Below are positions 850 through 17,027 of a stretch of DNA of 20,033 bases, piece after piece (the first letter of the stretch is position 1; each line of letters begins with the position of its first letter). The translations under genes were made by a program, and so were the position numbers. The stretch comes from a virus. Below the pieces are notes generated by a model. That model had not been told where the DNA came from, ran no database searches, and saw nothing but the letters and a program-made list of their open reading frames with translations. The stretch spans positions 1 through 20,033 of the IMG/VR virus record IMGVR_UViG_3300031977_000086, one strand, 5' to 3'.

Positions 850-3456
850 ATGCCTCTGTTAGTAAACAGTGTACCGAATCTCGCACAGGGAGTATCGCAA
901 CAGCCTGACAATCTCAGGTATCCCGGTCAGTGTGACGAACAAGTAAATGCTTGGGCTACTGTCGTTGAGGGGTTAGTAAAGCGTCCTAATACACGACACA
1001 TCAGTAAGTTATTTACTTCTGCTATTAGTGACGATGCTTATGTACAGTACATCAATAGAGACGACGACAATCAGTTTGCTGCTGTTATACAGAACAATGA
1101 TCTATCTTTATTTGATCTGAGTGACGGTACGGAAAAGACAGTATCTATCACAGCTAATGCACAGACTTACTTAGATGGTATAACAACTCCTCGTACTGAT
1201 GTTAAAGCATTAACTGTAGCTGACTATACATTCATAGCGAATAAAAAACAGACAGTAGCGTTGAGCAGTACACTTAGTTCTACACTTCCTTACGAAGCTT
1301 TAGTGTTCGTTAAATTGGGGGATTACAGTAAAGAATACAGCGTAGAGATAGACGGCCAGAAATTTATCTATGAAAGTGGAGACGGTCAGGACTCATCCGC
1401 TGATTCCACTGGTAACTCAGAAGGTACAGGTAAAGATGCGGATACTGAATACATAGCTGGACAACTAGCACAGACTTTAGGAACAGGTGGTCAAGTGACT
1501 TCTGTTACAATAACAAACGGAGGAAGCGGATACACCACACCACCAGATGTTACATTCAGTAATCCTGCTACAGGTACTGATAATGCTGGAGGTTATGCTT
1601 TGTTATCGGGAGGCGTAGTTACAGAAGTTGTTGTCACCCACGGAGGTAGAAAGTATACATCAGCACCTACTATTTCATTTAGTACAGGATCAGCAACAGC
1701 TACCGCTACAATAGCATCTACAGGTGTATCTCAAACAGTGGAAGTACAGAATGCTTGCATCAAGATCACAGGTACATCTGACTTTCAGATCGGAGCTAAG
1801 GATGGATTAGCTGACCAAGGACTGGGTTTAGTTTACAAAGAAGTAGGTAGCATCACTGATCTACCATCTAAAGCATACCACGGATTCCGTGTTAAAGTGC
1901 GTGGTGATGCAGAACTGGTGCAAGATGATTACTATGTAAAATTTGAGGTGCACGACGAAGAAGCGTTTGGAGGAGGTAGTTGGATAGAAGATATAGGATA
2001 CGGCATAAAGACTACTATCAACGCTACCACCATGCCATTACAGCTTAAACCTGATGACGCTACTTTTAATACTTGGACATTAGACACAGCAACTTGGGGA
2101 ACTAGATTAGCGGGAGATGATGACACGAATCCTGCTCCTACATTTGTTGGTAGTAAGATAAACGACATATTCTTCTTTAAAAACAGATTGGGTTTACTGA
2201 CAGATAGCAGTATTGTATTCTCCGAAGCAGATGAGTACTTTAACTTTTGGAGGACCACTGTGTTATCGTTGTTGGACTCTGCCCCTATCGATGTTGGAGT
2301 AGCACACACAAAGGTAGCTATCTTACAACACGCTATACCATTTCAAGAGAAGCTGCTTATCTTTTCTAACAGCACACAGTTTGTGCTACGTGGTACAGAT
2401 TTGTTAACACCTAAGACGGTAAGTATTACACCAGCTACAGAGTACGATTCATCAGATACTATAAAGCCGTTGGTGCTTAACAACTATGTATACTTTAACT
2501 TCCGTAGGAATAACTACGAAGGTGTTACAGAATACTACGTAGATAACGATACTAATATCTTTGACGCTGCTGAGATCACGGCACAAGTACCTACTTATGT
2601 ACCATCCCGTATCGAACTGATGACAGGATCAGCCACTGAGAATTTGTTGTGCTTGATAAACGGTAATCGTACTGAGATGTTTGTGTACAAGTTCTTTTGG
2701 CAGAATAAAGAAAAGGTACAGAGTGCTTGGCAGAAGTTTACATTTGGTAGGGAGATTGTAAGCATGGGCTTCATAGAGTCCGATCTGTACGTTATAACAA
2801 AAGATACCACAGATACATTCTTAGAGGTACTACCTATGGAGAATGATCTACAGGATACTGATCTTACTTACTCTATATTATTGGACAGTCGTATAGATGG
2901 CAGTGCATTGACTACTAACTTTAGTGGCGGTGTTACTACAATCAGCGGGTTTCCTTACGATCCAACAGGTGTCGAGATATACAGTAAAGCTGGACATAAG
3001 TACGCATTTACTAGGACATCAGCTACAGAGGGTACGGTGAGTGGTGATATAACATCTGTTCCATTCTTTGCTGGCATCCCGTACAATATGTTGTACAGGT
3101 TCTCCGACCAAACACTGAAGCAATCAACAGAAAGAGGAGGAAGAAGTGCATCTGATTACACCTTCCAAACGATTCGTAGTGGTAGCTTGAACTATGCAGA
3201 TACCGGACACTTTGTTGTAGAAGTAACACCGAAGTTCAGAGATAAGTATACCTACGTCTACAATCCTGATATTCTTGGAGCTGACTTAACACTTAACAGT
3301 TTTACCCCTCAGAGTGGTCACTTTAGATTCTCTGTACAAGCACAACCAGAAGAAGCAACCATCGAAGTAAAGAGCAGTTCTGCATTGCCAGTTAAGCTAT
3401 TAGCTGCAGAGTTTGAGTCTATGATGATACCGAGAAGCAGAAGATATGGAGCTTAG
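850..3456 (+). CDS. Tail tubular protein B (T7 gp12-like nozzle)
   Basis: This 868-residue protein begins with the gp12 signature: VPNLAQGVSQQPDNLRYPGQ, then QVNAWATVVEGLVKRP. Six copies form the tapered nozzle at the tip of the short tail, which binds the fibres and is the exit for DNA and internal proteins. The body keeps family features such as KNRLGLLTDSSIVFSEAD (around residue 443) and ends in IPRSRRYGA, a basic C-terminus usual for the family. It is longer than T7 gp12 (794 aa). Part of the extra length is an insert at about residues 216-290 with two GGSGYT-type beta repeats 41 residues apart. It follows gp11 by 3 bases and overlaps the next gene by 11. Confidence 0.93.
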   Translation: MPLLVNSVPNLAQGVSQQPDNLRYPGQCDEQVNAWATVVEGLVKRPNTRHISKLFTSAISDDAYVQYINRDDDNQFAAVIQNNDLSLFDLSDGTEKTVSITANAQTYLDGITTPRTDVKALTVADYTFIANKKQTVALSSTLSSTLPYEALVFVKLGDYSKEYSVEIDGQKFIYESGDGQDSSADSTGNSEGTGKDADTEYIAGQLAQTLGTGGQVTSVTITNGGSGYTTPPDVTFSNPATGTDNAGGYALLSGGVVTEVVVTHGGRKYTSAPTISFSTGSATATATIASTGVSQTVEVQNACIKITGTSDFQIGAKDGLADQGLGLVYKEVGSITDLPSKAYHGFRVKVRGDAELVQDDYYVKFEVHDEEAFGGGSWIEDIGYGIKTTINATTMPLQLKPDDATFNTWTLDTATWGTRLAGDDDTNPAPTFVGSKINDIFFFKNRLGLLTDSSIVFSEADEYFNFWRTTVLSLLDSAPIDVGVAHTKVAILQHAIPFQEKLLIFSNSTQFVLRGTDLLTPKTVSITPATEYDSSDTIKPLVLNNYVYFNFRRNNYEGVTEYYVDNDTNIFDAAEITAQVPTYVPSRIELMTGSATENLLCLINGNRTEMFVYKFFWQNKEKVQSAWQKFTFGREIVSMGFIESDLYVITKDTTDTFLEVLPMENDLQDTDLTYSILLDSRIDGSALTTNFSGGVTTISGFPYDPTGVEIYSKAGHKYAFTRTSATEGTVSGDITSVPFFAGIPYNMLYRFSDQTLKQSTERGGRSASDYTFQTIRSGSLNYADTGHFVVEVTPKFRDKYTYVYNPDILGADLTLNSFTPQSGHFRFSVQAQPEEATIEVKSSSALPVKLLAAEFESMMIPRSRRYGA

Positions 3457-3897: not shown

Positions 3898-4596
3898 ATG
3901 TGTTTTCCAGCAATAGGTGCAGCAGTCGTCGGAGCCAAGGCAGCAGCTGGTATGTCAGCTGTACAGTTAGGTATAGTAGGTGCTTCAACGGTAGCTGGTG
4001 TAGCGTCTCCTCTTGTATCGTATGCGGGGCAGCGTCAGCAAGCTAGACAACAAGCTAGATACCAAGCACAAGCAGCAGCTGCGGAGCGTCAGCGTTTCAT
4101 GCAGGAACAGACCTCTCTTCGTATGCGTCAAGCACAAGAACAAGAGGCAGTTGGACGGGAACTTGAACAAGTAAGTCGTAAATCACAAGCTGCACTTGCT
4201 AGAGCTAGAGTATCAGCTGGAGAAGCTGGAGTAGCGGGTGCGTCTGTACAGGCGTTGATGGACGACTATATGAGACAAGAAGCTGGGTATCGCAGTGCGT
4301 TATTACGACAACAAGAACTTGGTGGTATATCTACAGGCTTAGGTCTTGAACAAGCTGGGTTCGCTACGCAACAACGTCAGATCGGAATTAACCAACCAAT
4401 AGATAGACCTAGTGCTTTAGGTGCGTTACTTCAAGCTGGGCAGCAAGCTGTCAGTGGTTATTCGACTGGTTTACAAATGCAAAGTATGATGGGCGGCGGT
4501 GGAGCTGGAACATCTTCTGCATTACAATCTTACACAGCACCTAGAGCTATCGGTAGGTCTAATGTTAAAATCGGAGGCGGTTACAAGATACTATAA
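3898..4596 (+). CDS. T7 gp14-like internal core protein
   Basis: I place the start at ATG 3898, giving 232 residues. It has a purine-rich AGAGGAAG ribosome site at about 3882-3889, and the protein then begins MCFPAIGAAVVGAKAAAG, a typical gp14 opening. An in-frame ATG at 3847 lies inside the preceding gene and would add 17 unlikely residues. The N-terminal 45 or so residues are Ala/Gly/Val-rich and could insert in a membrane; residues about 48-120 are Gln/Arg/Ala-rich and probably a long helix. In T7, gp14 is ejected first and forms a pore in the outer membrane. The stop codon overlaps the next start by one base (TAATG). T7 gp14 is 196 aa, so the length is similar. Confidence 0.82.
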   Translation: MCFPAIGAAVVGAKAAAGMSAVQLGIVGASTVAGVASPLVSYAGQRQQARQQARYQAQAAAAERQRFMQEQTSLRMRQAQEQEAVGRELEQVSRKSQAALARARVSAGEAGVAGASVQALMDDYMRQEAGYRSALLRQQELGGISTGLGLEQAGFATQQRQIGINQPIDRPSALGALLQAGQQAVSGYSTGLQMQSMMGGGGAGTSSALQSYTAPRAIGRSNVKIGGGYKIL

Positions 4597-7001
4597 TGGC
4601 TAAAGAACGAGTACAAGTACAAGGGTTGGGAGACGCAGTTCCCGGCATTCAGCCGACTATTCAACGGGGCGGTCAGTACGCCGTGCAAGTTCAACGAGCA
4701 GGTCGGAATAAGTTGATGGACTTGGCTGATGCGTTGGGTCAAGTTAATCCGTTATTGCAGCAGTACGGAGGTTTACAGAAACAACAGGAACAGATCGGTA
4801 TTGAACAAGCTCAGTTAGTAGAAGAACAGAATGTTATATCTGAGTTAAAGAAGCAGAAGGATGTAGATGGCTTCAGTATATTAGCTACTACCAACAGGGA
4901 CAGAGCATACAGAGATGCGTTGTTAAAACGACACATCAATAGTACTATGTTGCCTAGTTTAGAAGCTAAAGCACAGGACTTAATCAATCCCGAAAAATAC
5001 AGAACTAGAAATGATTTGTTTCAAGCAGCGGATCAAACACTATCTGATGAATGGAGTGCGTTCGTAGCTGAAGTCGGCGAAGAGGTTGCTAACAGTACAG
5101 CAGGTAAAGCTATGTGGAGTGTTGTTACTTCTCCTTATAAAAATGAACTAGCAGCTAAGTACGAAAAAGCTAAAGATACTTTTGTAGCTGGGACTATCAG
5201 TGATGAAATTGGCAAATATTTAAAACCTAAGTTAAACCGATTCGATGAAGCTTCTGGTAAATATATTATAGATGTTAATGGTATACAGGACGGAGTAGCG
5301 GTATTCGATGAAAGATTATCTGAAGACTTACCCCACCTAACTAAACCGGAACGTAGTAAATTTTTAGTAAATAACTTTGCTAACGAACTAGAGGGGCTTT
5401 ATTCAGCTCAAAGATATACAGACGCTGCTCGTATGTTATCAGTTCTTAAAACCACTGAGTTAAATGATTCGTTTATATTCACAACACCTACAGCTAAAGA
5501 TATACTTAACCCAATAGAAACTAAAATAAACAATGCTATTGAAAAGTACGCAGATAAGAAGGAAAAGAAGAAGGTAGGTATTTATGTTAATAAAGTAACG
5601 GAGGCTCAGAAGGGTTTATACTTAGTTAATACTAAAGAGCAATTAGATGCTAATCCCGTTTTAAGAGCAGAGCTAATGGAGGCTTTTTCGTTTAGCGGCT
5701 TGGGTAACGGCGGAGTGCTTACGGAAGAAAGGAAACAACAAGCTATTGATGAATTATTTAATCCTGATGTCCCCGGCTTACCGCTTCAAAAATTTATACC
5801 TATCCTTAAAAACTTAGCAAAAGAAGGTGGAGAAGAATCTTACGATCATTTGTACGATGGTTTAGATGATATAAATGAAGGCCTTATCAACGCCTTAAAA
5901 GCTCCCGGTGCTCCTGTTGTTTTAGACGATGAAACGAAAAAGGATATAATTGAGGACCCGGTTAGCGGTTTAAAAGCTAAGTTAAAAGAAAACCCTAGAT
6001 TAAGTTTACTGCAATTCCAACGAGAACATCCTACAAACTTTGAGGTATGGAATGATTTAAAGAAGGAATACGCTGATTTAACTCGTTCTAATTATGTGTT
6101 TGATACAAACGTATGGAAAACTTCTAGCGATATTTTCGAAGAAAGATTAACTCAAGTTAACAATAAAATTATAGAAGAAGTTGGTATTAAAGCTACTGAA
6201 GCTAAACAAGAATTAAAGTCAGAATCTGAAATATATTCAAAGGCTCTTCAAAGCGATATAGAAACTTTACTTAAAACCGAAGCAGCTAAACCTGAAATAC
6301 TAGAATTAGAACCAGAGATTAGAGAAAGAAAGTTAAGAGAAAAACTAGATGAGATTGTTGCATATCATGCAGAGCGTTATCAAGGAATAACAGAAGCTAT
6401 GATAGAATTCAAAGAGAACACCGCAGAACGTAAAGTGGATGTAGATGTAGCAACAGAAGTTAAATTAAAAAAGACACTCAAAAGAAAAGCTGCTGAAACT
6501 GTGGAGTTTAAATCTTTACAGCCGCCTGAAATGGTTACTAAAAGAATAGGTAGGAGAATTGTGAAGCAACCAGCTATTATATCTTCCGAATTAATAAACG
6601 AAGATAGAAAGAAAATGATGGAAGGTGGTTTCCCTACTAGAAATCAGTTAAGGCTTTCATTGCACCGTTACGGGATGGATAGATGGAATCCTAAAGAAGC
6701 TGTTGAAATGTTAGATCAAGCAGGTATGACTTACCTAGATGTAAAATTATTCGGTAGCCACGCTGAGTTAGCTAAGGTAATGGATAAATGGTTACCTGTT
6801 ATGTATAAAGATATTGGTTATGTAGAAAAGGACGGTGTGTTTGAAATAGGAGACGCCGGGTTTTTAACTGAAGAAGAAATCGAAATAAGAAATGAGTATC
6901 AATCTTTTGGGCTAACGCCTCTAAGTGAGACTGATATTGTAGAGCAAGTATTAGATGGTGCTAACGGTTTTGAAGAAGCACAACTTAGTTTACTTAGATG
7001 A
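4596..7001 (+). CDS. T7 gp15-like internal virion protein
   Basis: The protein has 801 residues (T7 gp15: 747) and sits between the gp14-like and gp16-like genes with one- and four-base overlaps. It is mostly hydrophilic and helical. A Gln/Gly-rich N-terminus (GRNKLMDLADALGQVNPLL) is followed by long charged helices, and I see no membrane segment or transglycosylase motif. In T7, gp15 and gp16 leave the capsid and form a periplasmic tunnel for DNA translocation. The assignment rests mainly on gene order, length and character, since this family diverges quickly. The bases become more AT-rich here than in the tail tubular genes. Confidence 0.78.
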   Translation: MAKERVQVQGLGDAVPGIQPTIQRGGQYAVQVQRAGRNKLMDLADALGQVNPLLQQYGGLQKQQEQIGIEQAQLVEEQNVISELKKQKDVDGFSILATTNRDRAYRDALLKRHINSTMLPSLEAKAQDLINPEKYRTRNDLFQAADQTLSDEWSAFVAEVGEEVANSTAGKAMWSVVTSPYKNELAAKYEKAKDTFVAGTISDEIGKYLKPKLNRFDEASGKYIIDVNGIQDGVAVFDERLSEDLPHLTKPERSKFLVNNFANELEGLYSAQRYTDAARMLSVLKTTELNDSFIFTTPTAKDILNPIETKINNAIEKYADKKEKKKVGIYVNKVTEAQKGLYLVNTKEQLDANPVLRAELMEAFSFSGLGNGGVLTEERKQQAIDELFNPDVPGLPLQKFIPILKNLAKEGGEESYDHLYDGLDDINEGLINALKAPGAPVVLDDETKKDIIEDPVSGLKAKLKENPRLSLLQFQREHPTNFEVWNDLKKEYADLTRSNYVFDTNVWKTSSDIFEERLTQVNNKIIEEVGIKATEAKQELKSESEIYSKALQSDIETLLKTEAAKPEILELEPEIRERKLREKLDEIVAYHAERYQGITEAMIEFKENTAERKVDVDVATEVKLKKTLKRKAAETVEFKSLQPPEMVTKRIGRRIVKQPAIISSELINEDRKKMMEGGFPTRNQLRLSLHRYGMDRWNPKEAVEMLDQAGMTYLDVKLFGSHAELAKVMDKWLPVMYKDIGYVEKDGVFEIGDAGFLTEEEIEIRNEYQSFGLTPLSETDIVEQVLDGANGFEEAQLSLLR

Positions 7002-10000
7002 CGGAAGAAGAATATCGAAAGTATAAGGAAGAAAGAAGGAAGATGCTTGGTCTTCCTAGCTTACCAGTAAGAGAAGTAGCTACGCCCGAACCTGAGATTC
7101 CCGATTATACTATATCATCAAACACTACACCTGAAGTACCTCAAGAAGTAATTGATGCTTACTCACAAGTTCAAGGTGAGATAGAGGAAGGAAGTTATAT
7201 AACTGGAACTGCTCTAAGTGTAGCGGGTGAATTAGGTTTAGGTATAGGTTTATCTAGGCAGTTACACAAAAGTCAAAAATATTTAAAATGGATTAACGGT
7301 GCTCGTAGAGTATCTATGGCTGGTATATTAGCACCTGAGCCTTCTACTACTGTGGCTGGTGTTGTAGGTTTAGCGGCTACTGAAGCAGGTATATGGGGGC
7401 TGTCTAACTTTATTGGTCAACAGATTAGGCAGGGGTTTGGATTACAAGATGAGTATTCAGTTGGAGAGGGTATAGCTGCCTCTGTGTTTGGTGTAGGTAT
7501 TGTCACTAAAGCCGCTGATAAAGTATTTAAACTAGGCCCCGGTATTGGTGCTGCAAACGCATGGAAAGGACAGACAGCGTTAGTTAATGGTGTTGAAACG
7601 TTTATAAGCGGGGGTGCATTAGGTATAGCAGAATCTGCGTTGCGTCAAGAGATTGAAGCACAAATGAATGGTAAGGAACGCAACACTTATGACTACTTGT
7701 TCTCAGGCATAGCTGGCGGGGCTTTCAATACTTTGTTTTCAGTTTGGGGACGCACGGGTAAATGGGGTCGGGATCAAGCCAACGAAGCTGCAAGTAACGC
7801 TAAGAAACGTTTATTAAAAGATAAAGCCGATCTAATTGCTAAGCAGAATAAAATAGCTGGCAGAGCCGGAGCTGCTAGTAGAAGAAAGATACAGGGGGAA
7901 ATAAATAAAATCGATCAAGCCGTTGAAGTAATCGATGACGGCATAAGGGAAATAAAAGGTGCGGACGAAATACTTACAAAGCAAGAACAGGAGGCCGTAG
8001 CTGAAGACTTACCAGAGATTAAAAAAGAAGATCAAGGTCCTATATTGGAAGCTGAAGATATATCTGAAATTAAAAAACAAGATGAGGAAGTTGTAGCATC
8101 AAAGGATTTAGAGGAGGAAACAACGCAAGCTAGAGAAGCTGAAGAAGAAGTTGTTGAAGAACCTGCTAAGCCAGAAGAACAACCGGATGTTGTAGAAAAA
8201 GAAGCACTGCCTAGATTTGTGGATGATGAAAGGGAAGGAGCTTTTGACGCACTAGTAAGGCAGACTGAGACATACGGTTTTGTTAACATAGCAGATAACA
8301 GAAGGATGACTCGTATATCTCAAAGGCTATACGAAAGAAGTAATCAAAACTTTGAAATATTCTCTAAACGATTAAGGGAAGATATTACAGATATAGACAC
8401 TATCCAAGAGTTTTTAAATGAAGTTAAGTTCTTACGTAAATTAAACAATGAGATACGTTATCCTTTAGGTTTAGCGGCTGGCGGTGGTGTTCAAGCTTTT
8501 AAAGGAGATTCAGATAAATTTGCTTGGAGGAACGATAAAGCTAGTTACGCTAACCAATTAGAAGATGCGTCTTACGCAAAGCTGGAAGCTGATTTAGAAA
8601 TAGCACTCGGCAAGGGTACGTTATCTGAAGACGCTGACATACTTAAACAGCACAACGAATATGTAGAAGTAGACGAACCTAAGCCAGCACCTAAAGACGA
8701 AGCAGACTTAGAGATTGAGGATACTATGATGGAGGCTCCTGTGTCTTCTGAAGTAGATGTTGAAGCACAAACAGCAGAGGAAGTTACTAGAAAACTTTCA
8801 AAAAGAAAAGACGGATTAAAACAAAGGCTAAAGAAATTAGAGGAAGCTAGAGAAGAATTTGTTGGTTTAAGGGAAGAGGTTGCACCGAAGAAAGCTAAAG
8901 CGAAAACACCGGAAGAAGCAGACATACAGAATAGATTAGCTTTTTACAGAACTGCTAAGAAAGAAGCTAAAGAAACAGCACTGTTAGAAAATAGATTAGA
9001 AAGATACTTTGAATTATTAGAAGAAGGTGATATAGAAAAGATTAGACAGGAAGTAGGACCTGCACCTGATTGGGCTAAACCCAAAGAAATAGAAAGCTAC
9101 TTAGGCAAGTTAAGGTCTGTCGTAAATAAAACTAAAAAGCTTTTACAGAAAGAACTTATAGACGAAGATGAAGTACTCAGGTTAAAAGAAGCCGACGCAC
9201 TCGCTAGACAAAAACAGAGACTAGAAGGTAGACTAGAGCAGCTACAAGAACGCTTTGGTGATAGAGCTAAAATACAACCTAAAGAAAAGAAAGAAGTAAA
9301 GGTTGATCCTGAAGTAGCTGAATTAAAGCAACGTATAAAGTTTTACGAAGAAGCTGAGGCTGATGCGTTAGAGGTAGAGAGGTTAGAGGCTGAGTTAGCT
9401 AAAGTAGCTGAACTAGATGTAGCACCACTAGGCGAACAAAGAGCAGCTGTTACTCCTAAACCTACAGGACCACAGAAGCCTGACACTAGAGCGTCTGAAT
9501 TGCGTAGTAAAATCGCTAAAGTAAAAGCAAACATTAAGCAAAGACTAGCTGATATAGATAAAGCTAGACTTGAAATGTCTGATGAGTTTCAGGCGGCTAA
9601 AGCTGAAGCAGCGTTTCAAAAGAAGATCAACGGTTTACAAGCTAAGTTAGATGAACTTCGTGCTACATTTGCAAAAGAACCAGAGGAACTCGTACCCGGT
9701 AAACCTAAAGAAAAAGACCCTAAAGTAAAAGACTTAGAAGATAAGATTAAGTTTTACAAAGACGCACAATCTGAAGCTAGGAAGATAAAGGAACTAGAAG
9801 CTGAAAGAGCTAGGCTGTTAGAAGTTGAGACGGGACCATTGGGTAGACAGCGAGAAGAGATAACACCGAAACCTACAGGACCAAAGAAAGCACCGGGTAG
9901 GGTTGAGGAGCTAAATAAAGATATAGCTTTCTTGCGTAGTAACATGCGTAACAGAATACGTGAAATTGATCGGGCTAGAGTTGAAATGTCTGATGAATAT

Positions 10001-12694
10001 AAAGCAGAACAGTTACGCCAAGCTTACGAGAAGAAAAAGAATCAACTAGAAACAGAACTAGACGAATTACGTGAACGCTTTGGTAGAACTCCTGAAGACG
10101 TAGAAACTAAACCCGCCAAAGAACTAGAGCCAGAGTTTAAAGAACTTAAAGATAAGATAAATTATTACAAACAGGCAGAGCGTGAGATAACAAAGATTAT
10201 AGAGTTAGAAAAAGAATTAGCTAGAGTGGCAGATATAGAAGGTCGTAGTGTTATGGGTGAGCTTAGAGCGGAGACTGCTGTGCGACCTAAAGGACCTACG
10301 AAACCTCTAAAGTCAGCTGAGTTAAGAAAAAAGATAACAGCGTCTAAAAGAAGGATGCGTAAGAAACTTGCTGACATAGATAAAGCAGCTCAACAAATTA
10401 AAGACGAAGAATTACGCTTAGAAGTATTTAAAGATATGGAGGATGCGATATTTAAAAGCATGGATGTTGATGCTGTAAATACCACAACTAAAGTATTTCG
10501 TTGGGTTAAGCAGGCTAGGCAGTTAGCTTTAATTGACCAACTCCCATCTGTATTAGCTGGTGTTCCTACTGGTATAGGTGCTGTGTATAAACGTTTCTGG
10601 AAACCTTTATCTCGATACATAGTTACAAGGATGGAGGGAGGAAGTGCTGACGTTTCTAAGAAGATGGCAGCGATAGAAGCCCAAGCTGCTTTTAAGGTTA
10701 TTAGTATTCAGAAGGATTTGTTGGTAGCTATGAAGCGTTCATTCCAACAGAATATAGATGTTACCGATAAGATGCGTGGTAAGTTAGCTACTGATATTAA
10801 TAGGTTACCACAAGGCGAAGCTGCATTATTAAATAAAGCTTATAGAAGTGCTAAACAAAAACAGGAAGGATTAGATAACTTAGGAAACTATTTTGTAGAC
10901 ACTATCATAAACGGACATGTTATGGATTTGTTATCTCTAGGAGTTAGAGGCATACAAACTGTAGACGCTGTCTTTAAAAGGCAGTTAATTAAAGGTGATA
11001 TATACGCCGCATCTCAACAAAAAGCATTATTAAATAATCCGAAGGATTCGGCGAAAGCGATTAAGGAAGCTGAAGACGCATACAAAAAAGCGTGGATAGA
11101 TGATGACGGTTTAGAGGTGTTAGCATCCCACCATGAGTTTCAGGATAGAGTAGACAAAGTCAGGCAAGAGTTATTGTTTGCTGCAAATACAGATGATTTA
11201 GATTTAGCTTCTGGTACTTATGTAACTGAAAAGATAATAGGATTACTTAAAGACCTTAGTTCGGGAGACGGTTTACCGGGTACTGTTATTAACGCTTTCC
11301 TGCCTTATATAGGTGTACCTATCAGAGCTGTATATCGTGGATCAAGATTAGTAGGCTCTCCTGCTTTGCTTTTATCAGCTAGAACTAAAAACAATCCATA
11401 CAATAGAAGATTAGCTGAAGTTAAACAAAAGATGGCTGGTCTTCAAATGACTCTCAATAGGGATAATATAACTCCTGAGATGAAACAAAATGCTATGGGA
11501 TTGATGCAGGAGTTAAGGGAAGAGTCTACACGGTTAACTTCTCAGAGAACGGAGTACAATGTAGATATACTTACGGACACTTTTGTAGCCACATCTCTAG
11601 CTGTTGTTGGTTATGGAATGGCTACTAGCGGGATGATGACTGGTTCTCTTGCTTGGCTAACTGACGACCAAAGACAAAAAACAAAACTAGAACCCTTTAA
11701 AGCTTTAGATTCAGATTATTCAGCTGCCTTACCTTGGTCTTTTCCTTTAGCCTTAGCAGCGGACGTAGGAGCATTTTTAAAAATTAGAGCAGAGGAAGAT
11801 GCTACTGGTTCAAAGATTTTAACTAAAGATCAAACTTTGATACACGTTGTCAAAAACTCTCTTAAAGAACTAGCTAAAGAAATGCCTCTCGCACAAGGTG
11901 CTAGGAACTTTGAGGAACTAATAGACGGAGACGGTGAAGTATTCACTAGGGCTATGTACAGTTTAGCAACGAGTTACTTTCCTTATCCAGCTCAGTTTCG
12001 AAAATTTATGCAAGCATACGAGAATATAGGGGAGGCTGCTGTAAATGATTTAAGAGGAGGAGACTATAAAGATAGATTGTTATATTCTATATTTGGTAGA
12101 GGTATAGTTAATAAGAAGACAGACCACTTTGGATACGATATACAATCTAATAGAACTTTTATGACGGAAGCCGTTATAAGACAAGCACCTAGAAAGTCTA
12201 TAGACCGTACACAGTTTGATGATATACTAGCTGCTGATACACACGAGAACATACAAAGAAAGCCTTCTACCCTAGGACCCGGTATTAAATTCACAGACTT
12301 CAGAGACTCTGATGGCATGACGCTTTCTTACGCTTTCGACTTAAAGTTAAGAGATACTAAGATAAGAATTAAAGGTAAAAATCGTGTTATGGAGGATGCT
12401 ATATACGATCTTATCAATAGTACAAAATGGAATAAAAAGTTCGAACAAGGATTTAAACCCAGTGAAACTAGGCCAGATGTATATATTAACGAAGGTCTTA
12501 GAGAACTTAATGCGTTGATGCAGCAGTACTACAGAAGGACTAAAGAGGATTTATTAAAAGACAAAGATTATCTGTACGATTTCGTAGGTCCAAATGACAA
12601 ATCCTTGATAGATATTATTGAAGAATTAAAACAACCAGCTGAAGAAACTGGAAGACCTGCATCGATACGAGAACTATTAACTCTTGCTGACTAA
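6998..12694 (+). CDS. Giant T7 gp16-like internal virion (ejection) protein
   Basis: At 1898 residues this is far larger than T7 gp16 (1318). It starts in an ATGA overlap with the gp15-like gene. Residues about 60-255 hold Gly/Ala-rich hydrophobic stretches (LSVAGELGLGIGL, VAGVVGLAATEAGIWGL, FISGGALGIAESAL) like the membrane-active part of gp16. Residues about 265-420 are very charged and low in complexity. Residues 637 to about 1155 form four tandem coiled-coil repeats. The C-terminal 700 residues include hydrophobic segments (VATSLAVVGYGMATSGMM, ALPWSFPLALAADVGAF) arranged as in the T7 gp16 C-terminus. The N-terminal transglycosylase domain of T7 gp16, with its catalytic Glu motif, is not recognisable. 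It probably forms the inner part of the ejection channel. The role is inferred from position and layout. Confidence 0.75.
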   Translation: MTEEEYRKYKEERRKMLGLPSLPVREVATPEPEIPDYTISSNTTPEVPQEVIDAYSQVQGEIEEGSYITGTALSVAGELGLGIGLSRQLHKSQKYLKWINGARRVSMAGILAPEPSTTVAGVVGLAATEAGIWGLSNFIGQQIRQGFGLQDEYSVGEGIAASVFGVGIVTKAADKVFKLGPGIGAANAWKGQTALVNGVETFISGGALGIAESALRQEIEAQMNGKERNTYDYLFSGIAGGAFNTLFSVWGRTGKWGRDQANEAASNAKKRLLKDKADLIAKQNKIAGRAGAASRRKIQGEINKIDQAVEVIDDGIREIKGADEILTKQEQEAVAEDLPEIKKEDQGPILEAEDISEIKKQDEEVVASKDLEEETTQAREAEEEVVEEPAKPEEQPDVVEKEALPRFVDDEREGAFDALVRQTETYGFVNIADNRRMTRISQRLYERSNQNFEIFSKRLREDITDIDTIQEFLNEVKFLRKLNNEIRYPLGLAAGGGVQAFKGDSDKFAWRNDKASYANQLEDASYAKLEADLEIALGKGTLSEDADILKQHNEYVEVDEPKPAPKDEADLEIEDTMMEAPVSSEVDVEAQTAEEVTRKLSKRKDGLKQRLKKLEEAREEFVGLREEVAPKKAKAKTPEEADIQNRLAFYRTAKKEAKETALLENRLERYFELLEEGDIEKIRQEVGPAPDWAKPKEIESYLGKLRSVVNKTKKLLQKELIDEDEVLRLKEADALARQKQRLEGRLEQLQERFGDRAKIQPKEKKEVKVDPEVAELKQRIKFYEEAEADALEVERLEAELAKVAELDVAPLGEQRAAVTPKPTGPQKPDTRASELRSKIAKVKANIKQRLADIDKARLEMSDEFQAAKAEAAFQKKINGLQAKLDELRATFAKEPEELVPGKPKEKDPKVKDLEDKIKFYKDAQSEARKIKELEAERARLLEVETGPLGRQREEITPKPTGPKKAPGRVEELNKDIAFLRSNMRNRIREIDRARVEMSDEYKAEQLRQAYEKKKNQLETELDELRERFGRTPEDVETKPAKELEPEFKELKDKINYYKQAEREITKIIELEKELARVADIEGRSVMGELRAETAVRPKGPTKPLKSAELRKKITASKRRMRKKLADIDKAAQQIKDEELRLEVFKDMEDAIFKSMDVDAVNTTTKVFRWVKQARQLALIDQLPSVLAGVPTGIGAVYKRFWKPLSRYIVTRMEGGSADVSKKMAAIEAQAAFKVISIQKDLLVAMKRSFQQNIDVTDKMRGKLATDINRLPQGEAALLNKAYRSAKQKQEGLDNLGNYFVDTIINGHVMDLLSLGVRGIQTVDAVFKRQLIKGDIYAASQQKALLNNPKDSAKAIKEAEDAYKKAWIDDDGLEVLASHHEFQDRVDKVRQELLFAANTDDLDLASGTYVTEKIIGLLKDLSSGDGLPGTVINAFLPYIGVPIRAVYRGSRLVGSPALLLSARTKNNPYNRRLAEVKQKMAGLQMTLNRDNITPEMKQNAMGLMQELREESTRLTSQRTEYNVDILTDTFVATSLAVVGYGMATSGMMTGSLAWLTDDQRQKTKLEPFKALDSDYSAALPWSFPLALAADVGAFLKIRAEEDATGSKILTKDQTLIHVVKNSLKELAKEMPLAQGARNFEELIDGDGEVFTRAMYSLATSYFPYPAQFRKFMQAYENIGEAAVNDLRGGDYKDRLLYSIFGRGIVNKKTDHFGYDIQSNRTFMTEAVIRQAPRKSIDRTQFDDILAADTHENIQRKPSTLGPGIKFTDFRDSDGMTLSYAFDLKLRDTKIRIKGKNRVMEDAIYDLINSTKWNKKFEQGFKPSETRPDVYINEGLRELNALMQQYYRRTKEDLLKDKDYLYDFVGPNDKSLIDIIEELKQPAEETGRPASIRELLTLAD
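8906..10460 (+). repeat. Four tandem ~135-residue coiled-coil repeats in the gp16-like gene
   Basis: Repeat units begin at residues 637, 770, 907 and 1044 (bases 8906, 9305, 9716 and 10127). The last two spacings are both exactly 137 codons (411 bases); the first is 133. Each unit has the same parts: a P-E/K-[VF]-x-x-L-x-x-[KR]-I-x-[FY]-Y helix start, a Lys/Glu-rich coiled coil, a Pro hinge (TPKPTGP in units 2 and 3, RPKGP in unit 4), then a DID[KR]A helix and an L-x-E-L-R-x-x-F end. Unit 1 is divergent and unit 4 loses its tail. Units 2 and 3 share stretches of 15 identical bases, so they duplicated more recently. Confidence 0.85.
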
Positions 12695-12740: not shown

Positions 12741-14576
12741 ATGGCTAACACCTACGTAGACTACACAGGCGACAACAGCGAGACTGATTTCATCTTTAAC
12801 TTTGACTACCTTCAAGACGACCACGTTAAGGTAAAAGTAAACGATGTTATCGTAACGAACTACTCCATCGTAGAAGTATCAGCGGATAATGTTATTCGTT
12901 TTGATACAGCTCCAGCATCCAATGCTTCAATCCGCATATACCGTGACAGTCGTGGTGATTTCTCCCCGCTTGTTGACTTTGTGGACGGCTCTGTACTTAC
13001 AGGTGACAACTTAGATGAAGCATACAAACACAACTTATTTGTATCACAAGAAGCGTCAGAAGGTACTGGTAATGAATTGCTTAACAAAAAAGGAGGAGCT
13101 AACTACGACGCTGAAGGTAACAAGATAATAAACCTCGGCACTCCTACTGATTCTACCGACGCTGCTAACAAAGGATACACCGATCAAACCATAGACAACG
13201 CTATAGCTCTTGGTGGTAGTCCTGCTATTGTATCGCTCGGTGGGTACGATGTTACTGCATTCGGTACTAGTATTACTAAATCTTTAGCTAACTGGACTAA
13301 TGATTTAAATTCACCTACAGCTACAGGTTCAACTACATCTAGGAGTCTTGCTGATCGGTTTGCTGATGTAGTTAATGTCTTAGACTTTGGAGCCGACAAT
13401 ACAGGGACATCAGATAGTACAACAGCTTTCACTAGTGCTTTCACTAGAGCTAATGCTATAGGTCTTGATTTTATTTATGTACCAAGAGGTACTTATTTAG
13501 TAACAAGTATAACAGCGTCAGGGTGTGGTATAATAGGAGACGGTCAAGATTCTACAATAATAAAAGGTACAAACGCTAGTGCTGTGATTTTAACTATAGC
13601 TGCTAATACAGAGAACACCCGGTTCATGGATTTTCATATAAGATTTGATAGCACAAGTGCCACAGGTAAATGCATAGAACTAGCTAATAATACACACCAA
13701 CTAAGCTTTCAAAGAATTTGGACAAGATATGGGGCATACGGGATATACAGCGATACTAATAACACGCATTGGATGTCTGACTATACTAATATTAGGGCAG
13801 ACAACCACAGTAGTTATGGTTATTATATAAACGGTACTAATGCGGCTTTGACTACATTATCGTTTAGAAATTGCTACGCCAATAATTGTACCAGTGGTTT
13901 CTTCATTTCTAATTGCAGTGAGCTGACCATGATTGATTCGGCTGTTGACCTCGCAACGACTTGGGGTATGAACTTACAATTCTGTGAGGGAGGCAATATT
14001 CTTTCTAGCCATTTTGAACAGTGTGATTTTGGAGCGGAAACAGAAAGGGCTTTGATAAATTTAATTAACTGCGACTCAATGAATATTGACGGAGTATACA
14101 GCGACACTAACCAAGCTGATACTTCTTTTTACGCTTTGAGAATAGCCGGATCAAACGGTGCTCGTAATATTAAGTTCAGTAACCTTTTTCAAATATCTAA
14201 CACAAACTTAAACTTTTTATATGTAAACAGCGACTGCACTAAAGCTAATAGTAATCTACTGTTAAGCGGAGTTAATGCTGATTTAAATGCTACATTCTCA
14301 GGTGATACTGTTATTACCCATTTAGATTATTTAAACTTTGTTAGGTCAGTCAGTACGGACGTAAACGGTTCTATCGATGGTACATTCCCAACAGCTCCTA
14401 GTTATTTAAGTAAAACAGCACATTCGTATGTGGATGATGGTATGACTGACTATTATGTGTCAATGGATAAACCTACTTCCACTACATATCAAGCTAGATT
14501 AAGGAACCCCGATGGTACGTTTGCTACAGTAAGTGGTATTGAGATCATAACTAAATTCTCTTTTTATAGATTTTAA
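12741..14576 (+). CDS. T7-type tail fibre/tailspike with pectate-lyase-like beta-helix
   Basis: The 611-residue protein opens with the T7 gp17 tail-attachment domain (residues 1 to about 115: VDYTGDNSETDFIFNFDYL, later IRIYRDS and LTGDNLDEAYKHNLFVSQEA). A linker with the phage-fibre pattern IINLGTPTDSTDAANKGYTD follows. From residue 213, VLDFGADNTGTSDST marks the start of a pectate-lyase-superfamily domain (PF12708 type), and the next 220 residues have the Asn-rich short-strand rhythm of a right-handed beta-helix. Such spikes often bind or cleave surface polysaccharide. A depolymerase activity is plausible but no catalytic residues can be assigned by eye. The N-terminal domain would dock it on the adaptor-nozzle junction. 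The C-terminal ~90 residues are a separate, unrecognised module. Confidence 0.9.
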   Translation: MANTYVDYTGDNSETDFIFNFDYLQDDHVKVKVNDVIVTNYSIVEVSADNVIRFDTAPASNASIRIYRDSRGDFSPLVDFVDGSVLTGDNLDEAYKHNLFVSQEASEGTGNELLNKKGGANYDAEGNKIINLGTPTDSTDAANKGYTDQTIDNAIALGGSPAIVSLGGYDVTAFGTSITKSLANWTNDLNSPTATGSTTSRSLADRFADVVNVLDFGADNTGTSDSTTAFTSAFTRANAIGLDFIYVPRGTYLVTSITASGCGIIGDGQDSTIIKGTNASAVILTIAANTENTRFMDFHIRFDSTSATGKCIELANNTHQLSFQRIWTRYGAYGIYSDTNNTHWMSDYTNIRADNHSSYGYYINGTNAALTTLSFRNCYANNCTSGFFISNCSELTMIDSAVDLATTWGMNLQFCEGGNILSSHFEQCDFGAETERALINLINCDSMNIDGVYSDTNQADTSFYALRIAGSNGARNIKFSNLFQISNTNLNFLYVNSDCTKANSNLLLSGVNADLNATFSGDTVITHLDYLNFVRSVSTDVNGSIDGTFPTAPSYLSKTAHSYVDDGMTDYYVSMDKPTSTTYQARLRNPDGTFATVSGIEIITKFSFYRF

Positions 14577-15667: not shown

Positions 15668-16012
15668 ATGAGTAGTTTACTTACACAATTAGGACAGAAG
15701 GTTAAAGCCAAGCTTGATAACAAGTTTGATAAGTCCGGAGGCTTGATTAGTGGTTCGGTAAATATATCACAATCTCTGCAAATAGGATCATATCTTACAT
15801 CTAGTTTACCAGCAGCTGGCACATCAGGGCGTATCATATATGTTACTGATGGGGACGGTAGTGGTGGTCCTTGTATAGCTGTAGATGATGGAACGGATTG
15901 GAAAATCGTAGAGCTTGGCGGTGCAGTACCTACTGTTACTCATATACTTGCGGAAGATGGAGACAGTTTAACTACTGAGGCTGGGGCTATTTTAATCACC
16001 GAGCCAGCTTGA
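15668..16012 (+). CDS. Short fibre-like protein (MSSLLTQLGQK module)
   Basis: The protein has 114 residues. The first 18 or so (MSSLLTQLGQKVKAKLD) match the start of the larger fibre protein at 16077 almost exactly, implying a shared attachment module. The middle, GTSGRIIYVTDGDGSGGP then CIAVDDGTDWKIVELGG, resembles short beta segments in tail and fibre proteins of marine phages. The end (HILAEDGDSLTTEAG then ILITEP) has the repeating LxxEDGxxLxxE pattern common at phage structural protein C-termini. Start at ATG 15668; the only purine run, GAGG, is unusually close. Probably a minor virion protein at the tail. Confidence 0.65.
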   Translation: MSSLLTQLGQKVKAKLDNKFDKSGGLISGSVNISQSLQIGSYLTSSLPAAGTSGRIIYVTDGDGSGGPCIAVDDGTDWKIVELGGAVPTVTHILAEDGDSLTTEAGAILITEPA

Positions 16013-16076: not shown

Positions 16077-17027
16077 ATGTCTAGTTTGCTTACCCAATTG
16101 GGTCAAAAAACAAAAGTAGAGCTTGATAAGAAGCTTGCCCTCGCAGGTGGAACAATGACTGGGGCTTTGACCCTCAGCGGTGCTCCAACTGCTTCCCTTC
16201 ACGCCGCTACCAAAGCTTATGTAGATACTGCTTCTGATACTTCAGCTCTTCAGTCCGAACTCGACGCTACTCAAGCTGGTGCAGGTCTTGGATCAGGTGG
16301 TGCTTATACCGCTAACGGTTCAGCCAACTACATCAGCTCGGTAACAACTCTGCAAGCAGCTGACAACGCTCTTGACGCACAGATCAAAACAAATGCTGAC
16401 GCTATCGCTTCTAACGATTCTGACATTTCTACCTTACAATCTAACGTAAGTAGCAATGACTCAGACATCAGCTCACTTCAATCTGACGTTTCATCTGCTC
16501 AGTCTGACATCACTACTCTTCAATCGAACGTAAGCTCGAATGATTCGGACATCAGCACTCTTCAAAGCAACGTATCCAGCAACGACACTGACATCTCCAA
16601 TCTGCAAACTCAAGCTGGTTCCCTCGCTTCTGACGGTAACTCTGCTTCGTTCAGTGGAAACATCAGTGCTGCTAATGCTACATTCAGCGGTAACTTGACT
16701 GTTAATGGTACGACCACTTCGATCAACACCACTAACATCGACGTTACTGACTCCTTGATGAACCTTTCTAAAGGTGCAGCTTCCGGTACTAACGCTTCTA
16801 ATGACGGTGGTTTCATCGTTGAGCGTGGTTCTTCCGAAAGCAATGTAGCTTTTATCTGGGACGAAGGAGATGACAAGTTCAAGGTTCTTTCAACCTCCGC
16901 AACTGCTGCCGCTACTGACGTATCCAGCACGGACGGCTCTGCTACTCTAGCTGATCTTGACGCTAACCTCTACCACAACGGAACTGAATTAGGAACCGTT
17001 GCTGAGTTCGAGTCTGCTTTAACCTAA
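16077..17027 (+). CDS. Long fibre protein with 14-residue coiled-coil repeats
   Basis: The 316-residue protein has distinct parts. Residues 1-20 (MSSLLTQLGQKTKVELDKKL) repeat the start of the 15668 gene. Residues 24-50 (GGTMTGALTLSGAPTASLHA then ATKAYVD) are the phage-fibre pattern that often precedes shaft domains. Residues 112-181 are five 14-residue repeats predicted to be a trimeric coiled coil. From about 185 come FSGN/ATFSGNLTVNGTTT beta repeats and a C-terminal domain with GGFIVERGSSESN and FIWDEGDDKF, motifs I associate with marine phage fibre tips. It is likely a trimeric side fibre or whisker. AAGGA at 16063-16067 supports ATG 16077. Codons here are less AT-rich than in the gp15/gp16-like genes. 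Confidence 0.8.
   Translation: MSSLLTQLGQKTKVELDKKLALAGGTMTGALTLSGAPTASLHAATKAYVDTASDTSALQSELDATQAGAGLGSGGAYTANGSANYISSVTTLQAADNALDAQIKTNADAIASNDSDISTLQSNVSSNDSDISSLQSDVSSAQSDITTLQSNVSSNDSDISTLQSNVSSNDTDISNLQTQAGSLASDGNSASFSGNISAANATFSGNLTVNGTTTSINTTNIDVTDSLMNLSKGAASGTNASNDGGFIVERGSSESNVAFIWDEGDDKFKVLSTSATAAATDVSSTDGSATLADLDANLYHNGTELGTVAEFESALT
16410..16619 (+). repeat. Five 42-base repeats encoding 14-residue coiled-coil units
   Basis: Units start at residues 112, 126, 140, 154 and 168. The consensus is SNDSDISTLQSNVS, with Ile at 6, Leu at 9 and Val at 13, and Asn at 2 of the next unit completing two heptads. Synonymous codons differ freely between units while the residues are kept, so the repeat is under protein-level selection and is not a recent DNA duplication. 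Unit 3 has SAQ in place of SND; unit 5 ends differently (LQTQAG). Confidence 0.85.

What the first reader, a model, noticed from the sequence alone, without database searches (positions are those of the whole stretch)
8906..10460. Recent tandem amplification of a 137-residue coiled-coil unit in an ejection protein
Four related units (residues 637, 770, 907, 1044) lie in the middle of the gp16-like protein, the last two intervals exactly 411 bases. Each has a Lys/Glu-rich coiled coil broken by a TPKPTGP-type hinge. T7 gp16 has no such insert. Proteins of this class must unfold, pass the tail and form a periplasm-spanning tube, so a repeat that adds a fixed length per copy could act as a molecular ruler matched to the host envelope. 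The ruler idea is inference; the repeat is visible directly.
Basis: partly seen in the sequence, partly recalled or inferred. Interest (0 to 1): 0.65.

Follow-up and report, generated by a model that had tools for sequence, protein, structure and literature searches.

The report
Shuffled length modules in phage injection protein
A huge DNA-injection protein of uncultured marine phages carries zero to four copies of a roughly 137-residue helical block; the blocks are ancient relatives rather than recent duplicates, and related phages gain or lose whole blocks by precise recombination, so the protein changes length in fixed steps, though nothing here shows that this measures the host envelope.

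Summary
The repeat is real. ORF 6998-12694 (1898 aa), in the gp16 position of a T7-like marine phage, holds units at residues 632-764, 765-901, 902-1038 and 1039-1151. The offset-137 diagonal scores 471 against a shuffled maximum of 68-77. "Recent tandem amplification" is wrong: window units share only 24-45% identity, while each matches the same-position unit of relatives at up to 96%. About 60 relatives carry architectures none, A, BA, DA, CBA, DbA, DbbA or DCBA, in fixed order with 133-143-residue spacing, with at least 10 changes on an array-free tree. One mechanism is visible: L098's single middle unit is an in-register chimera of L099's two, switching at an 8-nt shared site, exactly 411 nt apart. 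The window's unit D is 59% identical to a clade otherwise 29-41% identical, so it looks imported. Units are under purifying selection (dN/dS 0.02-0.08). The C-terminal part is remotely homologous to cultured gp16-type proteins (E 2e-13). The envelope ruler is not supported: phages with 1, 3 and 4 units share 69-82% identical tail fibres, and the gp15-like partner's length is unrelated to copy number.

The parts
6998..12694 (+). gp16-like ejection protein, 1898 aa, no Pfam/PHROGs match and no relative in 50,697 phage records
   Evidence: homology of the C-terminal part to cultured gp16-type proteins
6998..8707 (+). N-terminal region (residues 1-570) with Gly-rich hydrophobic segments at residues 68-177
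8768..8860 (+). weak partial unit before the array (residues 591-621); arrays in the family typically start with a C-terminal partial unit
8891..9289 (+). Unit D (residues 632-764), GPAPDWAKP hinge; absent from sister L003 (DNA similarity to L003 is lost over about 8790-9250 and recovers by about 9300); shared with the L042/L046 and L093-L108 lineages
9290..9700 (+). Unit C (residues 765-901, 137 aa), TPKPTGP hinge
9701..10111 (+). Unit B (residues 902-1038, 137 aa), TPKPTGP hinge
10112..10450 (+). Unit A (residues 1039-1151, C-terminally truncated unit), present in nearly every family member
10451..12691 (+). C-terminal gp16 core (residues 1152-1898), homologous to P-SSP7 gp16 / pelagiphage 'internal virion protein D'; hydrophobic segments at residues 1176-1196 and 1522-1596
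4596..7001 (+). gp15-like partner (801 aa); its length does not follow unit number in relatives
12741..14576 (+). gp17-like tail fibre (Phage_T7_tail N-terminus plus pectate-lyase-like domain), used as a host proxy

Best explanation
The feature is a modular, helical, length-quantised spacer inserted in a gp16-type ejection protein of uncultured T7-like marine phages, directly in front of the conserved gp16 core. SHOWN: it is built from ancient, diverged ~137-residue unit types (D, C, B, A and the b units of another clade) that keep a fixed order and nearly fixed spacing (133-143 residues, most often 137) and are under purifying selection; whole units are gained and lost among close relatives. 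SHOWN for two lineages: a changed copy number with a hybrid unit at an in-register crossover between two paralogous units exactly 137 codons apart (direction, loss or gain, not proven). SUPPORTED for the window: unit D was imported as a module from another lineage on top of a C-B-A array. INFERRED: each unit folds as a long helix, a proline hinge and two shorter helices, so adding or removing a full period keeps the fold, the helix register and the reading frame intact; the array acts as an adjustable rod or tether between the N-terminal hydrophobic part and the gp16 core of the ejectosome, and its length is tolerated over 0-4 units rather than measured against one host.
For: Repeat significance. 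Position-specific unit types with same-position orthology across the family. Copy numbers 0-4 with spacing 133-143, C-to-B spacing exactly 137 in every member having both, and 845-870 residues from the last unit to the C-terminus in all members with an intact end. Architecture changes at least 10 times on an array-free tree. Chimeric unit: L098 vs L099 DNA identity 0.92-1.00 (mostly 0.98-1.00) per 50-nt window to unit m1 up to the junction and then to m2, switching at AAAGA(T/C)AT, period exactly 137 codons; m1 and m2 only 40% alike; L103 vs L105 shows the same pattern, more diverged; L098 = L108 from two metagenomes. Unit D: 58-59% to the L093-L108 clade while A-unit is 38-41%, C-term 29-31%, N-term 31-33%; absent from sisters L003, L004, L005/L006. 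Purifying selection, dN/dS 0.083, 0.022, 0.041 in units C, B, A vs 0.066 N-terminal and 0.038-0.039 C-terminal. gp16 homology: hhalign prob 98%, E 2.3e-13 over 450 columns; column-shuffled controls reach raw score 28 against 96-117.
Against: Fold of the units is predicted only at low confidence (pLDDT 58), so rod-like shape and constant rise are unproven. L005 to L006 loses 181 residues (one unit plus a 44-residue linker), so not every event is an exact period. All relatives are metagenomic contigs; no host, virion or protein data exist. The window's four-unit D-C-B-A state is backed by one other contig only (L001, identical from residue 648). Direction of the L098/L099 event is not resolved.
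Confidence: 0.62

Rival explanations
1. Periplasmic molecular ruler: copy number sets the span of the ejectosome and is matched to the host's envelope thickness.
For: Length changes in nearly fixed steps per unit; the protein is of the gp16 ejection type; gp15/gp16 of T7 span the periplasm (PMC8954989).
Against: Tail fibres 69-82% identical over full length are carried by phages with 1 (L061), 3 (L020) and 4 (L094) units; close gp16 relatives with unrelated fibres keep the same copy number; gp15-like lengths 713-804 do not follow copy number (e.g. 801 in both window and L003); copy numbers 3 and 4 coexist in one metagenome, 3300025759 (L003, L095 with three; L105 with four); by T7 analogy the array lies between the two membrane-associated regions, i.e. 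in the cytoplasmic part.
Confidence: 0.1
2. In-virion role: the units enlarge or brace the gp16 ring of the internal core stack inside the capsid, and extra units tune packing rather than ejection reach.
For: T7 gp16 forms the top ring of the core stack and is globular before ejection (PMC8954989); units are strongly conserved.
Against: No capsid, portal or core data could be compared with copy number here; does not by itself explain why 0 to 4 units are all viable.
Confidence: 0.15
3. Neutral filler: the array is a low-constraint spacer whose copy number drifts by recombination with no functional effect.
For: Copy number changes at least 10 times; members with no detectable unit exist (L054, L055, L073).
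Against: dN/dS of 0.02-0.08 in the units, as low as in the flanking domains; spacing fixed at 137 between units C and B in every member having both; same order and position-specific sequence over deep divergence.
Confidence: 0.1
4. Recent tandem amplification within the window's lineage (the title of the finding).
For: Head-to-tail arrangement and exact 411-nt spacing of three units.
Against: Units differ from each other by 55-76% of residues while same-position units of relatives are 88-96% identical; unit D nests with other lineages, not with units C-A.
Confidence: 0.02

Closest known systems
gp16-type internal virion protein (internal virion protein D) of marine Autographiviridae, e.g. Prochlorococcus phage P-SSP7 gp16, pelagiphage HTVC025P, Roseobacter phage CRP-125 (PHROG phrog_6651)
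   Same: Gene position after gp14/gp15-like genes and before the gp17 fibre; C-terminal domain homologous at profile level (E 2.3e-13, 450 columns)
   Different: About 1440-2070 aa instead of 773-1420 in most cultured members fetched; unit array immediately upstream of the conserved core; no direct sequence hit in 50,697 phage records
Escherichia phage T7 gp16 (phrog_342)
   Same: Gene order; weak hydrophobic clusters before and after a long central part
   Different: No N-terminal SLT transglycosylase domain and no detectable similarity by hhalign (prob 0.4%)
Tail tape measure proteins with repeats (long-tailed phages)
   Same: Works-like comparison only: a helical repeat array that changes protein length in steps
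   Different: Podovirus-type gene set; nothing shown to be measured; no profile match. The comparison rests on general knowledge, not on a test here

Membership tests
gp16-type internal virion / ejection protein | Position in the T7-like structural operon (gp11, gp12, gp13, gp14, gp15, gp16, gp17) | tested here: met
   PHROGs tail proteins phrog_446/457, internal virion proteins phrog_308/805 upstream, T7_tail fibre downstream
gp16-type internal virion / ejection protein | Homologous C-terminal core | tested here: met
   A6 vs 13 cultured gp16-type proteins: prob 98%, E 2.3e-13; shuffled controls far lower. Remote only; single-sequence comparisons fail
gp16-type internal virion / ejection protein | Membrane-associated segments flanking the central part | tested here: inconclusive
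   Weak hydrophobic clusters at 68-177 and 1176-1196/1522-1596, strength similar to T7 gp16
gp16-type internal virion / ejection protein | Ejected into the host and required for infection | not testable with these tools
   No virion or infection data
T7 gp16 proper (phrog_342) | N-terminal SLT transglycosylase domain and sequence similarity to T7 gp16 | tested here: not met
   No SLT domain in the window protein, present in T7 gp16; hhalign prob 0.4%
Recent tandem repeat expansion | Copies in one genome more alike than same-position copies of relatives | tested here: not met
Molecular ruler (tape-measure-like) | Protein length correlates with a physical dimension of host or virion | not testable with these tools
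   No host or particle data; proxies (fibre, gp15-like length) show no relation

The most novel reading that the evidence does not exclude
The unit number is an evolvable length dial of the short-tailed phage ejectosome: by in-register recombination between diverged paralogous units and import of units from other phages, gp16 reach (or the distance at which its cytoplasmic hub holds the entering DNA) is reset in about 137-residue steps, a podovirus counterpart of the tape measure principle.
Probability: 0.18. Interest if true: 0.8.

Novelty: new variant of a known kind. Interest (0 to 1): 0.55.

Why it matters
It supplies a natural allelic series (0, 1, 2, 3, 4 units) in a single ejection-protein family, with close pairs that differ by one period, so the question whether ejectosome dimensions matter for genome entry becomes testable. 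It also shows a precise route for length change in a large virion protein: crossover at matching positions of paralogous repeats that share only about 40% of residues, leaving frame and period intact, plus horizontal import of single modules. The family has no relative in 50,697 phage records, PHROGs, Pfam or PDB by direct sequence search, so it extends the known range of gp16-type proteins.

Tried and rejected
Direct tblastn of the protein, of several relatives and of the gp15-like partner against 50,697 phage records: nothing usable. Pfam, PHROGs and PDB sequence searches of the family: nothing usable. Host by prophage: genome-contig scan found no relative, so host envelope comparison was impossible. 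AlphaFold2 of the array (pLDDT 58) and of the C-terminal domain (pLDDT 61): too weak to measure a rise per unit. Foldseek of the C-terminal model: no PDB match, but 18 viral models at E<=0.001 including cyanophage internal virion proteins, which prompted the profile comparison that worked. Single-sequence hhalign against T7, CRP-125, P-SSP7 and S-CBP3 proteins was insignificant. Foldseek of the array model found only an unannotated marine-virus relative, A0A0F7LB33. Antisense ORFs at 9343-9534, 9754-9945 and 10165-10377 lie about 411 nt apart, as expected from repeated sequence, and were not taken as genes. The tail-fibre test is only a proxy for host. Literature searches found no description of such an array in an ejection protein, but the library holds open-licence papers only.

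Full report
Observation. The ORF at 6998-12694 encodes 1898 residues. An ungapped self-alignment at offset 137 spans residues 765-1000 vs 902-1137 with score 471, against maxima of 77 (residue shuffles) and 68 (heptad-phase shuffles). A unit profile finds four units at 632-755, 765-895, 902-1032 and 1041-1151, the first divergent (99 bits) and the last truncated (profile 3-113 of 131); register 1 of the units lies at 632, 765, 902 and 1039. The stated coordinates and 411-nt intervals are right. Pairwise identities between units are 24-45%.

What the protein is. Genes upstream match tail and internal virion protein families (phrog_446, 457, 308, 805) and the gene downstream has the T7 fibre N-terminus; a T7-type terminase follows. 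The gp16-position protein itself has no Pfam, PHROGs, PDB or phage-record match. IMG/VR scans returned about 60 relatives. A profile of 40 C-terminal domains matches a profile of 13 cultured gp16-type proteins (P-SSP7, S-TIP37, S-CBP1/2/3, P60, Syn5, HTVC025P, ProddE, Roseobacter CRP phages and others) over 450 columns at prob 98%, E 2.3e-13; column-shuffled and reversed controls stay at raw score 28 or below against 96 for the real pair. So it is a remote member of the gp16-type ejection proteins, without the SLT domain of T7 gp16 and with no direct similarity to T7 gp16.

Not a recent amplification. In a unit tree, units group by position counted from the C-terminal end (A last, then B, then C), and the window's first unit groups with the first unit of L042/L046 as a fourth type, D. 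Window units C, B and A are 88, 96 and 91% identical to the same-position units of L003. The arrays observed are: none (L054, L055, L073), A (L058-L065, L070, L049, L050), B-A (L006, L048), D-A (L042, L046), C-B-A (L003-L005, L007-L022 and others), D-b-A (L093, L095, L096, L098, L102, L103, L108), D-b-b-A (L094, L097, L099, L101, L104-L107) and D-C-B-A (window, L001). The lower-case b units score best with the B profile but form groups of their own. Order is constant; C-to-B spacing is exactly 137 in every member having both, other spacings are 133-143, and the length from the last unit to the end is 845-870 in members with an intact end. On a tree of the C-terminal domain alone at least 10 changes of architecture are needed (unordered parsimony on a quick tree).

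How copy number changes. L098 and L099 belong to one sub-clade. L098 has one middle unit where L099 has two that are only 40% alike. The L098 unit matches the first L099 unit up to KDI and the second from there on; in DNA, 50-nt windows are 0.92-1.00 identical (mostly 0.98-1.00) to one path before the switch and to the other after it, the switch lies in a shared AAAGA(T/C)AT, and the paths are exactly 137 codons apart. L103 relative to L105 shows a hybrid at about the same position, more diverged. This is in-register recombination between paralogous units; whether the event was a loss or a gain, and whether the two cases are independent, is not settled. L006 relative to L005 lost 181 residues, one unit plus a 44-residue linker. 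The window itself gained or kept D: relative to its sister L003, DNA similarity is lost over about 8790-9250 and recovers by about 9300. D is 58-59% identical to the L093-L108 clade although A-units are 38-41%, C-terminal domains 29-31% and N-terminal regions 31-33% identical, and none of the sisters has D. Import from another lineage is therefore the simplest reading.

Function. Units are under strong purifying selection (dN/dS 0.083, 0.022 and 0.041 in C, B and A between window and L003; flanks 0.066 and 0.038-0.039; simple Nei-Gojobori counts). AlphaFold2 gives helices with a break at the proline hinge but at low confidence. In T7 gp16 two membrane-associated regions (residues 243-410 and 1119-1290) flank a part assigned to the cytoplasm (PMC8954989). 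The window protein has weak hydrophobic clusters at 68-177 and at 1176-1196/1522-1596, and the array lies between them. If the topology is shared, the array would be on the cytoplasmic side, not in the periplasm. This is analogy.

Ruler test by proxy. No host is known; a scan of one genome per species found no prophage relative. A fibre of 264-273 residues is shared at 69-82% identity over its full length by L061 (1 unit), L020 (3 units) and L094 (4 units). Conversely, close gp16 relatives with unrelated fibres keep their copy number, for example L011/L015 (3) and L058/L060 (1). The two sister pairs that differ in copy number (window/L003, L005/L006) also differ in fibre, but so do same-copy pairs, so that is uninformative. 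The gp15-like partner is 801 in both window and L003, 743 in L099 and 748 in L098. Phages with three units (L003, L095) and four units (L105) come from one metagenome, 3300025759. None of this supports a host-matched ruler, although fibres are only a proxy.

Verdict. A real, conserved and modular array in a new branch of gp16-type proteins, with an unusually clear record of how copy number changes. The evolutionary part is well supported; the mechanical role (adjustable spacer) is inference.

Noticed in passing
L042:4503-10292 (residues about 390-680) vs L046:4935-10304: The gp16-like protein of L042 carries a methyltransferase-like stretch (PF08241, E 1.6e-4, residues 439-481) and, by eye only, an ADP-ribosyltransferase-like stretch near 560-670 that the near-identical L046 appears to lack: possible swapped enzyme cargo in an ejected protein.
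   Followed up: partly
window 16077-17027 vs L003 16812-17753: ORF with short NDSDISTLQSNVSS-type repeats; the L003 homologue aligns with 33 gap positions, so a second, short repeat also seems to vary in copy number in these phages.
   Followed up: no
window 15668-16012 and 16077-17027: Two neighbouring ORFs begin with nearly the same sequence (MSSLLTQLGQK), suggesting paralogous fibre-associated proteins.
   Followed up: no
window 4596-7001: The gp15-position protein (801 aa) also has no match in PHROGs, Pfam or 50,697 phage records.
   Followed up: partly
L005 and L006 units C and B: L005's unit C and L005/L006's unit B cluster with the L007/L013/L014 lineage while their unit A clusters with the window and L003: recombination between lineages with a breakpoint inside the array.
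   Followed up: partly
window 850-3456 vs L006:1135-4485: The gp12-like tail protein has an insert (residues about 191-313) matching domains of other PHROGs, and is 1116 aa in L006 against 868 here.
   Followed up: no
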